Of a stretch of DNA of 64,000 nt, positions 39,730 through 40,770 are shown piece after piece; the stretch's first letter is position 1, and the number at the start of each line of letters is the position of its first letter. Origin of the DNA: Lunularia cruciata. Lineage: Eukaryota > Streptophyta > Marchantiopsida > Lunulariales > Lunulariaceae. A program made the position numbers and the translations under genes. The stretch is taken from positions 36,842,333-36,906,332 of the forward strand of contig OX419756.1 of the NCBI GenBank assembly GCA_948567375.1. The letters run 5' to 3'. Below the pieces are notes generated by a model. The model ran no database searches. It was given only the letters and a program-made list of their open reading frames with translations, and was not told the DNA's origin.

Positions 39730-40770
39730 GACCTAACACTTGATGCTTAGATGCCTCTAACATTTTTGGAACAACAGTTATATCGGTGCAAAAACCCATC
39801 ATCCACTCTCTCTCATTGGCGTTGGGCTCCACCAAATCTTGTAACTATGAGTCCCAAACAAGTCCAAGACTTCTCTCTCAAAAACCATGAGAGCTTGGGA
39901 AACTCATAAGTGTAGGAAAAGTGGCTCTGGGTTATCCAACTAGGTTCACCACTGCCATAGGTGACTTATTAGCCACTACCACCATTTGAGACTGACTCCC
40001 AACATCCAAGATGTCATCAACAATGATGTGGTCTAGTCATTGAATCCTATCATAAACATATTGTAGAACGTCTGTAGGTAAGAGGTTCATCCACCAAAGA
40101 CAAAGATGATGAGCATGAGATCCTACTCTAGTTTCATCTAACAACATGGTAAGTCCCATCCAAGAATTGACTTGATATGTACTTGCCACCACCTAGGTTC
40201 AAGAATCAGTATCAAAGGGACATTATCCAAAATGTAAGCTAGAGAAACACACTGATGAACCTAGAGATGTCGTAGTATACATAACATCTCCCAAAACACA
40301 CCAAAACATGGATCCTAAAGACCCAAACCTTGGCCCGCATGTGTTTGTCTATGACATGGCCATCCAAAAATCACCAAATATATGGGACCATGTCTCTCTA
40401 AATCCTTCACCCCCCGTAAGCAAATGTCTTATGGTAGGATCTTTTGGTAACCCTTGATTGTTGACATTGGTAATAACTTAGGATACCGACAAGCCAAGTG
40501 TGCTACATGATGTAGAGAGATTTTCCCAGTAGTCTCATCTCTCTCCACATACAAAGTAATTCTTTACTCATATACCCTCTTGTAGTATCATAGCTAGTCT
40601 AGTAGTATTCACACCAAACAACTCCAATAGACATACTCCCTCTATTAGATACTGCCAAGCAATGAGTGTGGTATCTAGAGGTGTCAAGGTAATTGACTCT
40701 AGAGGCTCATCCTCACACTGGTTGCTTAGTGGTACAAAGGCTCCACTCCAAGCTTGTTGTACCAACTGAT
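39730..40770 (-). pseudogene. Element A C5 cytosine DNA methyltransferase-like domain
   Basis: Read in shifting minus-strand frames, this region shows the ordered motifs of C5 DNA methyltransferases. Motif I: CLLELFGVNTTRLAMILQEG (40574-40636). Then LYVERDETTGKISLHHVA. Motif IV: LVIFGWPCHRQTHAGQGLG with the catalytic-type Pro-Cys at 40354-40359. Motif VI: AYILDNVPL, with DNV for ENV (40219-40227). A motif VIII-like VGSHAHHLCLWWMNLL (R-rich in the family). Then SPMAVVNLVG, and motif IX/X-like EWMMGFCTDITVVP and EASKHQVLG near 39735. Spacing and order fit; Gly residues of motif I and the Gln after Cys are lost. It lies between gag and RT. The enzyme would methylate cytosine at C5; this copy is dead (stops, frameshifts). 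Confidence 0.75.

What the first reader, a model, noticed from the sequence alone, without database searches (positions are those of the whole stretch)
39730..40770. C5 DNA methyltransferase-like domain inside the pol of an old gypsy element
Seen: ordered blocks LLELFG, GWPCHRQTHAGQG, AYILDNVPL, a W-W-M-N-L block and a C-terminal MGF...QVLG, in the orientation and reading order of element A, between gag and RT. Known: C5 cytosine methyltransferases carry motifs I (F-x-G), IV (Pro-Cys), VI (E-N-V), VIII and IX/X in this order; retrotransposons with captured DNMTs have been reported in dinoflagellates and charophyte algae. Inference: element A could methylate cytosines of its own or host DNA, perhaps to hide as host-like chromatin or to regulate copies. 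The domain is decayed here, so intact relatives are needed.
Basis: partly seen in the sequence, partly recalled or inferred. Interest (0 to 1): 0.92.

Follow-up and report, generated by a model that had tools for sequence, protein, structure and literature searches.

The report
DNA-methylating retrotransposon in a plant
An old, broken jumping gene in this plant genome carries a piece of an enzyme that marks DNA with methyl groups; several younger relatives in the same genome carry the whole enzyme, together with a histone-reading finger, so the element could write and read the chromatin marks that normally silence it.

Summary
Confirmed. Window 39731-40639 (minus strand) is a frame-broken DNMT3-like C5 methyltransferase domain of a nested, about 9.6-kb gypsy-type element "A" (51243 to about 19042), interrupted by four later insertions. 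The window copy alone gives no Pfam hit; it is 67-71% identical to an open-frame copy of the same 565.8-Mb genome, and such copies pass the DNA_methylase cut-off.

In six copies read over 10 kb, ORF1 (gag-NC-protease-DNMT) ends at an in-frame UAG and RT-RNaseH-integrase-PHD finger follows in frame. Over 43 loci the stop is always TAG, 41 in the TMV-type leaky context CAR-YYA. All 12 RT-chosen loci carry the DNMT stretch, 7 with stops inside. DNMT dN/dS is 0.43; it is the best-kept ORF1 part against a Marchantia relative (72%). Termini are split direct repeats, with 4-bp target duplications in 4 of 5 copies.

DNMT3 in gypsy-type elements with DIRS-like repeats is known from the alga Klebsormidium. 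New, as far as the searched papers show: land-plant members, the leaky-UAG layout, the PHD finger, and two DNMT positions among relatives. Activity, readthrough and PHD ligand are untested. New variant of a known kind.

The parts
50805..51243 (-). element A, 5' terminal repeat A1
   Evidence: 84.4% direct repeat with 19143-19583; matches the A repeat of L039/L044
48805..49517 (-). element A, gag N-terminal part (broken)
   Evidence: tblastn of L039 ORF1 residues 31-280
42809..48804 (+). later insertion C (LTR element, + strand, LTRs 42805-43533 / 48059-48802, K2P 0.046)
41921..42808 (-). element A, gag C-terminal part and nucleocapsid; two zinc knuckles at 42386-42409 and 42275-42316
   Evidence: tblastn 73.8% to L039 ORF1 279-576; motifs
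40930..41496 (-). element A, aspartic protease region (approximate, worked out from the tblastn segments; RVLLD at 41356-41370)
   Evidence: tblastn of L039 ORF1 around residues 724-907; LLDSG in 5 of 6 copies
39731..40639 (-). element A, C5 DNA methyltransferase (DNMT3-like) domain, three frame segments with stops; motifs I, IV, VI, VIII, X recognisable
   Evidence: tblastn 66.7/70.4/70.6% to L039 ORF1; PDB hits all DNMT3 for the middle piece; motif positions
31746..39729 (-). later insertion B (gypsy LTR element with its own gag, protease and RT; LTRs 31743-32201 / 39271-39729, K2P 0.088); about 505 bp of A, including the place of the ORF1/ORF2 junction, are missing here
30982..31744 (-). 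element A, reverse transcriptase (broken)
   Evidence: tblastn 76.7-83.3% to L044 ORF2; CGDYRPIN 31475-31498, YIDDILVY 31171-31194
30615..30964 (-). element A, RNase H first part
   Evidence: tblastn
25073..30625 (-). later insertion D (LTR element, repeats 25073-25440 / 30274-30629, K2P 0.059)
23827..25071 (-). element A, RNase H remainder and integrase (zinc-binding and core)
   Evidence: tblastn 76.4% to L044 ORF2 412-826
20433..23828 (.). later insertion E (not classified)
   Evidence: gap in the blastn map of L039/L044 on the window
19847..20431 (-). element A, integrase C-terminal part and PHD finger remnant
   Evidence: tblastn of L044 ORF2 826-1037, last segment 91.3% over 23 aa; PHD in L044 passes Pfam
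19558..19675 (-). element A, internal repeat B1
   Evidence: alignment to the B repeat of L041, score 126 of 214
19143..19583 (-). element A, 3' repeat A2
19042..19143 (-). element A, 3' terminal repeat B2
   Evidence: alignment to the B repeat of L041, score 121 of 214

Best explanation
Element A is a dead copy of a large family of gypsy-type retrotransposons, with young members, that encode their own DNMT3-like C5 DNA methyltransferase. Shown: the DNMT sits between protease and RT and near the end of ORF1, which closes at a UAG in leaky context; ORF2 continues in frame with RT, RNase H, integrase and a C-terminal PHD finger; copies carry split direct repeats A1...B1-A2-B2, and 4 of 5 have a 4-bp target duplication; the DNMT stretch is present in 12 of 12 RT-chosen loci; its dN/dS is below 1. 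Inferred: most ribosomes stop at the UAG, so the methyltransferase is made with Gag and protease, at structural-protein level, and could be packed in the particle; a minority read through and make RT-integrase-PHD. The DNMT methylates cytosines de novo in the element's newly made DNA (or at the fresh insertion), so the new copy arrives already methylated and passes as host DNA or is kept quiet until conditions suit. The PHD finger, closest to readers of unmodified histone H3 tails, tethers integrase or the methyltransferase complex to chosen chromatin. [quoted passage not shown]
For: Domain identity: L044 ORF1 passes Pfam DNA_methylase (31.6 bits, cut-off 22), and ORF2 passes RVT_1, RNaseH, integrase and PHD. 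PDB search of the L044 domain: DNMT3A/B/C in the top 29 rows (best E 2.7e-11), then HaeIII (2.5e-4), HhaI and DRM2 (from 0.005), DNMT2 type (from 0.018); no DNMT1 or CMT at E up to 1. Junction: TAG in 31 of 31 copies and 12 of 12 RT-chosen loci (L045 is L044's own place, so 42 distinct copies); CAR-YYA follows in 29 of 31 and 12 of 12. CAR YYA 3' of UAG is called essential for TMV readthrough (passages of PMC2754532; PMC2194720). Selection: dN/dS of DNMT 0.43 (0.30-0.57) in 31 copies, 0.45 (0.28-0.70) in the 12 RT-chosen loci. Against Marchantia P0001: DNMT 72%, gag 65, nucleocapsid 64, protease 59, spacers 52, tail 45. Target duplications in 4 of 5 copies. Young copies: A1/A2 K2P 0.010-0.022 in four of five. 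Decay of A against L044: C-to-T 48% at CG, 34% at CHG, 11% at CHH. De novo CG methylation was shown for a Symbiodinium DIRS element's DNMT; the LINE one tested did not methylate DNA in yeast (PMC5890265, abstract and section 11).
Against: No activity, expression, readthrough or binding was measured. Many copies are broken in this domain: 6 of 31 have all five motifs on one open frame under strict patterns; 7 of 12 RT-chosen loci have a stop inside the DNMT. dN/dS of DNMT (0.45) is weaker than that of RT (0.08) in those 12 loci, which were chosen for intact RT. The spacer between protease and DNMT has as low a ratio (0.40, 0.23-0.72), so among young copies the ratio is not special to the domain. 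UAG conservation is among copies 94-100% alike there and so not independent. No stable RNA fold follows the UAG (z 0.57). The CG+CHG decay can be due to host enzymes alone. The PHD ligand class is inferred from the nearest solved structures.
Confidence: 0.6

Rival explanations
1. The DNMT fold is kept as a nucleic-acid-binding or structural part of the Gag-side polyprotein (genome or cDNA chaperone), without methylating DNA.
For: It lies next to Gag and protease upstream of the stop, where binding proteins are made in excess. Motif IV Pro is Glu (GWECQ) in 14 of 39 ungapped relatives. Pfam aligns only part of the profile (48-120 of 324).
Against: The catalytic Cys is kept in 38 of 38 rows not gapped there, the motif VI Glu in 41 of 41, the second motif VIII Arg in 40 of 40 ungapped, the motif X Asp in 39 of 40. 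A binding-only role would not need them.
Confidence: 0.2
2. The methyltransferase limits its own family: it marks the element's copies so that the host keeps them silent, lowering cost to the host (self-restraint) rather than hiding or protecting new copies.
For: A carries a strong CG/CHG decay signature. De Mendoza et al. raise slower retrotransposition for the host's benefit as a possibility (PMC5890265 section 11).
Against: The family has spread widely here: all 150 scored RT matches (a capped list) are at least 98% identical. CHG decay points to host enzymes (recalled).
Confidence: 0.15
3. The resemblance in the window is chance and the domain is not part of the element.
For: No Pfam or NCBIfam hit for the window pieces.
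Against: Whole-element blastn map of L039/L044 onto the window; 12 of 12 RT-chosen loci carry the domain.
Confidence: 0.01

Closest known systems
KnitGypsy-Dnmt3 of the charophyte Klebsormidium nitens (de Mendoza et al. 2018, PMC5890265)
   Same: Gypsy domain composition, an unrearranged DNMT3-type domain inside the coding region, purifying selection, and repeats said to be of DIRS structure (section 9 and Fig. 4 legend); here split direct repeats too.
   Different: Here in a genome whose elements are close to Marchantia's, with a leaky-context UAG after the DNMT, a PHD finger after integrase and 4-bp target duplications. 'PHD', 'readthrough', 'Marchantia' and 'moss' do not occur in that paper's main text. 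K. nitens sequences were not at hand, so homology was not tested.
SymbioDIRS-Dnmt3 and SymbioLINE-Dnmt of Symbiodinium (same paper)
   Same: Retrotransposon-encoded DNMTs; the DIRS one methylates CG de novo (abstract, section 11).
   Different: Other retrotransposon classes; independent capture according to the authors; the LINE one tested showed no DNA methylation in yeast.
Marchantia polymorpha (15), Sphagnum fallax (1) and Closterium sp. NIES-53 (2) proteins among the 57 relatives
   Same: DNMT before RT or after protease; Marchantia 60-73% identity in the domain.
   Different: NCBI names are 'hypothetical protein' or 'unnamed protein product'; UniRef names, cut in the listing, begin 'CCHC-type domai', 'DNA (cytosine-5' and 'Reverse transcr'. 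One Closterium predicted protein joins protease, DNMT and RT.
14 unnamed polyproteins with RT-RNaseH-DNMT-INT-PHD (of the 57; source lists jgi, ena, lgn)
   Same: Homologous DNMT, gypsy RT/RH/INT and a PHD finger on one protein.
   Different: DNMT lies between RNase H and integrase instead of between protease and RT.
Chromoviruses (gypsy with integrase chromodomain)
   Same: A chromatin-reading domain at the C-terminus of integrase (abstract starts).

Membership tests
C5 DNA methyltransferase (PF00145) | profile match over the curated cut-off | tested here: met
   L044 ORF1 31.6 > 22 bits; P0001 35.6; the window pieces alone: none
C5 DNA methyltransferase (PF00145) | catalytic Cys of motif IV, Glu of motif VI, Arg of motif VIII | tested here: met
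   Cys 38 of 38 ungapped rows, Glu 41 of 41; the window copy keeps GWPC but has DNV for ENV and lacks the motif VIII Arg
C5 DNA methyltransferase (PF00145) | methyl transfer to cytosine | not testable with these tools
   no assay
DNMT3 subfamily | closest to DNMT3 among solved C5 methyltransferases, motifs in unrearranged order | tested here: met
   top 29 PDB rows DNMT3A/B/C; order I-IV-VI-VIII-X
DNMT3 subfamily | groups with host DNMT3 in a tree against other DNMT classes | tested here: inconclusive
   only two host DNMT3 rows as outgroup, on a branch of length 3.22; retro rows are one clade 100/100; no DRM/MET/CMT rows were put in
DNMT3 subfamily | PWWP or ADD domain beside the catalytic domain (recalled) | tested here: not met
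   ORF1 of L044 has no other Pfam domain at E up to 0.01; a PHD finger lies at the end of ORF2
Ty3/gypsy retrotransposon | RT-RNaseH-INT order with gypsy-type domains | tested here: met
   Pfam on L044 ORF2
Ty3/gypsy retrotransposon | the same long terminal direct repeat at both ends | tested here: not met
   5' end is A1, 3' end is A2-B2 with B1 before it; no B beside A1 in the five copies read there
Ty3/gypsy retrotransposon | target-site duplication of 4-6 bp with TG..CA ends (recalled) | tested here: met
   exact 4-bp duplication in 4 of 5 copies, ends TGTC...GACA; not seen for A in the window nor for L043
KnitGypsy-Dnmt3 kind | Dnmt3 in the coding region of a gypsy-domain element with DIRS-like repeats | tested here: met
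   against PMC5890265 section 9
KnitGypsy-Dnmt3 kind | common descent of DNMT and RT with K. nitens elements | not tested
   no row named K. nitens came up, where only the 7999 candidates sharing most words were scored
DIRS retrotransposon | tyrosine recombinase instead of DDE integrase (recalled) | tested here: not met
   integrase core rve and H2C2 found and no recombinase family listed at E up to 0.01; 4-bp duplications
Leaky UAG (TMV type) | UAG followed by CAR YYA, same frame on both sides | tested here: met
   29 of 31, 12 of 12; frame kept
Leaky UAG (TMV type) | measured readthrough | not testable with these tools
   no assay

The most novel reading that the evidence does not exclude
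One old streptophyte lineage of gypsy-type elements both writes and reads chromatin marks: a DNMT3-like enzyme made at Gag level ahead of a leaky UAG methylates the element's cDNA inside the particle, and a PHD finger on the integrase steers insertion to nucleosomes with an unmodified H3 tail, the mark that host DNMT3 also reads. The DNMT module has moved within the same lineage between two places, and the genome ends are rebuilt from split repeats although integration uses a DDE integrase.
Probability: 0.3. Interest if true: 0.88.

Novelty: new variant of a known kind. Interest (0 to 1): 0.74.

Why it matters
Plants silence transposons by cytosine methylation, so a plant transposon that carries its own methyltransferase is a paradox. 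The 2018 algal finding left the role of such enzymes open. Relatives here sit in Marchantia polymorpha, a plant with good genetics (recalled), and in a genome where all 150 scored RT matches (a capped list) are at least 98% identical. Whether a transposon gains by methylating itself therefore becomes testable in a land plant. The leaky-UAG layout predicts how much enzyme is made and where, and the paired PHD finger predicts where copies land.

Tried and rejected
Protein database: a search with the 131-aa window piece found nothing, nor did the stop-masked frame of the window; an ORF1 from an open-frame genome copy found relatives. IMG/VR scans with the RT piece and the C-terminal DNMT piece found no relative. 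Pfam and NCBIfam on window pieces: none. RNA structure after the UAG: no better than shuffles. A second, adenine-type methyltransferase at the C-terminus of P0034: only below cut-off (15.7 against 22 bits; PDB best E 0.4), so kept as a lead. Structure prediction never ran. One versus two captures of the DNMT: DNMT and RT trees both split the two layouts; the protease-side layout is one clade (100/98), the other as one clade is not rejected (p-AU 0.196); so one capture followed by a move is favoured but not proven. Rows dropped: the DNMT tree used 39 of 57 relatives plus L044 (short, cut or redundant rows left out; P0056, kept, left out for its long branch). In one search the single host DNMT3 exon fell inside the other layout without support. 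The dN/dS rests on copies chosen by their DNMT profile score, hence the RT-chosen repeat; the gag (0.96) and integrase core (0.95) values rest on 6 copies with wide ranges. Copy number is only a lower bound (123 scored of 2161 candidates, 116 in the retro range of the model by my count; 150 scored of 38872; 27 of 150 show exactly the 1037-aa ORF2 by my count). A DNA search with the window DNMT stretch did not complete. The host was not identified: a liverwort is a guess from element similarity to Marchantia, and the tree puts the Sphagnum copy nearer to Marchantia than L044, weakly. Papers looked at by passages without use for the argument: PMC6453930, PMC6338049.

Full report
What is in the window. 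The middle piece alone, however, matches only DNMT3 chains in the PDB (13 of 13 hits, best E 0.0048). The first and last pieces gave nothing meaningful there.

The element around it. Self-comparison of the window shows nested repeat pairs. Mapping two open-frame copies of the same genome onto the window resolves the nest. Element A runs on the minus strand from 51243 to about 19042 and survives in five segments: 51217-48805, 42808-39730, 31745-30626, 25072-23829 and 20432-19042. Between them lie four later insertions: C (42809-48804), B (31746-39729), D (25073-30625) and E (20433-23828). Repeat-pair distances fit this order: A 0.175, against B 0.088, D 0.059 and C 0.046 (K2P). About 505 bp of A are missing where B sits, among them the place of the junction between the two reading frames. 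The RT at 34.6-35.2 kb is B's. A's own RT, RNase H, integrase and PHD remnants follow at 31744 and below. So the DNMT does lie between gag/protease and RT of one element.

The family in this genome. The window lies in a 565.8-Mb genome of 74 contigs. A PF00145 search scored 123 of 2161 candidates, all over the cut-off; by my count 116 match the same part of the model as the copies read below, and 7 are host exons or unclear. Host exons read by eye include DNMT3-type (L009, L012) and DRM-type (L010, L023) ones and a CMT/DNMT1-like one (L011). Six 10-kb stretches were read. ORF1, up to 1428 aa, holds gag, zinc knuckles, protease (LLDSG in 5 of 6) and the DNMT (split by a stop in L042). It ends at TAG. 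ORF2, up to 1037 aa and in the same frame, holds RT, RNase H and integrase; in L044 a PHD finger ends it. Pfam on L044: DNA_methylase 31.6 bits (cut-off 22), RVT_1 109, RNase H 120.5, integrase core 48.5, PHD 40.9 (cut-off 24). A search with the L044 RT scored 150 of 38872 candidates, all at least 98% identical. Of its 12 fetched loci, all 12 carry the whole DNMT stretch (945 of 945 bases aligned; one is L044's own place), 7 of them with a stop inside it. In the 31 earlier copies 6 have all five motifs on one frame under strict patterns. The family has young members but many broken ones. RTs of the genome's best-scoring RVT_1 matches (L001-L008) are only 35-38% identical to it.

The stop between ORF1 and ORF2. 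It is TAG in 31 of 31 copies, followed by CAGCCA (26), CAGCTA (2), CAGTCA (1), CAGCAA (1) and CAGCTT (1), and TAG-CAGCCA in 12 of 12 RT-chosen loci. CAR YYA directly after UAG is described as essential for readthrough in tobacco mosaic virus; 32% readthrough was reported for the TMV sequence with a dual reporter in plants (passages of PMC2754532; also PMC2194720). The copies are 94-100% alike there, so these counts are not independent. Two Marchantia ORF1 proteins (P0001, P0003) end 91 aa after motif X, and ten unnamed proteins at 51-53% identity (P0013-P0022) also end after the DNMT without RT (tails of 124-141 aa in the five where the pattern found motif X). The layout therefore may be older than this genome, but their DNA was not seen and a cut contig is not excluded. 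In Closterium one predicted protein holds protease, DNMT and RT. No unusual RNA fold follows the stop (z 0.57). If readthrough is as in TMV, the methyltransferase is made with Gag, not with RT.

The termini. The five copies read at the 5' end begin with TGTCACGCC; the six read at the 3' end finish with GCACGACA (GCATGACA in L043). The repeats are A1 at the 5' end and B1-A2-B2 at the 3' end; B is not found beside A1. An exact 4-bp duplication flanks 4 of 5 copies; the fifth, L043, has unlike A repeats (K2P 0.110). Element length is about 9.6 kb (L041). The window copy keeps A1, B1, A2 and B2 but no duplication. Split direct repeats are the mark of DIRS-like elements (recalled); here they go with a DDE-type integrase and a target duplication. 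The 2018 paper says the same of K. nitens: repeats as in DIRS, domains as in gypsy (Fig. 4 legend). A1/A2 distance is 0.010-0.022 K2P in four of five copies.

Kind of methyltransferase. PDB search with the L044 domain gives DNMT3A, 3B and 3C in the first 29 rows (E from 2.7e-11), then HaeIII (2.5e-4), HhaI and DRM2 (from 0.005), DNMT2 type (from 0.018), and no DNMT1 or CMT at E up to 1. Motifs I, IV, VI, VIII and X are in normal order. Across 41 aligned retro rows the catalytic Cys is kept in 38 of 38 ungapped rows and the motif VI Glu in 41 of 41. Motif IV Pro is Glu in 14 of 39 ungapped rows, among them both Closterium rows.

Relatives and history. The protein search found 57 relatives: by name 15 Marchantia polymorpha, 1 Sphagnum fallax, 2 Closterium and 39 unnamed (only the 7999 candidates sharing most words were scored). 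By domain order 30 have DNMT before RT or after protease, 22 have it after RNase H, and 5 are too short to tell. Trees of DNMT and RT both separate the two layouts. With two host DNMT3 rows as outgroup the 40 retro rows used are one clade (100/100) and the protease-side layout is one clade (100/98); the other layout as one clade is not rejected (p-AU 0.196). The outgroup branch is long, so a single capture followed by relocation is favoured, not proven. K. nitens could not be included.

Selection. In one search dN/dS is: DNMT 0.43 (0.30-0.57, 31 copies), spacer before it 0.40 (0.23-0.72, 31), protease 0.38 (28), tail 0.77 (31), RT 0.31 (7), and on 6 copies each spacer NC-PR 0.48, RNase H 0.25, integrase C-terminus 0.41, PHD 0.29, gag 0.96 and integrase core 0.95, with wide ranges. 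In the RT-chosen loci DNMT is 0.45 (0.28-0.70) and RT 0.08. The young copies thus show constraint on the coding region but do not single out the DNMT. The deeper comparison does: between L039 and Marchantia P0001 the DNMT is the best-kept ORF1 part, 227 of 314 residues, against gag 194 of 299, nucleocapsid 32 of 50, protease 108 of 184, spacers 126 of 241 and 47 of 91, tail 38 of 84.

Decay of the window copy. Taking L044 as stand-in for the ancestor, C-to-T change in A is 48% at CG, 34% at CHG and 11% at CHH sites, with matching G-to-A values (36, 41, 10%). This is the pattern expected if A was methylated at CG and CHG after insertion. CHG methylation is what host chromomethylases do (recalled), so this is no proof of the element's own enzyme.

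PHD finger. Its best PDB matches include CHD4, KMT2D, MLL3, KDM5B, ubi-d4, PHF12, DPF3 and PHF21A, and further down UHRF1 and AIRE (60 of 87 matches shown). Most of these read unmodified H3 tails (recalled), as does the ADD domain of DNMT3 (recalled). This suggests but does not show its ligand.

Prior knowledge. PMC5890265 (abstract, sections 9 and 11, found passages) reports DNMTs in Symbiodinium DIRS/LINE elements and K. nitens gypsy elements, with de novo CG activity for a DIRS one. PMC12344493 (found passages) says that some DNMT3 members lie in LTR Copia and DIRS elements, as reported in streptophytes and dinoflagellates. The survey of plant LTR elements PMC6317226 has no 'methyltransferase', 'PHD', 'Marchantia' or 'Sphagnum' in its main text, and the Marchantia methylome paper PMC5784723 has no 'DNMT3' or 'retrotransposon-encoded'. 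In the listed rows of searches I saw no title on DNMT-bearing gypsy elements of land plants or on a PHD finger in them. Most subscription papers are not in that library, so this is not proof of absence.

Verdict. A real DNMT3-like domain in a gypsy-type element, whole in some relatives and conserved across plants, a new variant of the Klebsormidium kind. Its biochemical role is inferred.

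Noticed in passing
14 relatives between P0027 and P0055: Motif IV has Glu instead of Pro before the catalytic Cys (GWECQ-like) in 14 of 39 ungapped rows; the Pro is nearly universal in C5 methyltransferases (recalled).
   Followed up: partly
P0034 residues about 1660-1870: C-terminal extension after the PHD finger with DPWAGTG and TSPW motifs, weakly like a D12 adenine methyltransferase (15.7 bits, below cut-off): possibly a second methyltransferase in the same polyprotein.
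   Followed up: partly
P0026 (Sphagnum fallax): The Sphagnum copy groups nearer to Marchantia than the window genome's copy does (98/76 and 83/51); horizontal transfer or weak resolution.
   Followed up: no
L043: A1/A2 repeats differ by K2P 0.110 and no target duplication is seen, although ORF1 (1209 aa) and ORF2 (1037 aa) are open; perhaps a recombinant copy.
   Followed up: no
window 58372-60727 and 61692-64000: 2.4-kb direct repeat pair, 89% identical, at the right end of the window, not classified.
   Followed up: no
window 42811-43122 and 48065-48376: The LTRs of inserted element C each contain two tandem copies of a 156-bp unit, about 80-81% alike.
   Followed up: no
L009, L012 (host genes): The host genome has exons of at least two DNMT3-type genes with introns, besides DRM-type genes.
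   Followed up: partly
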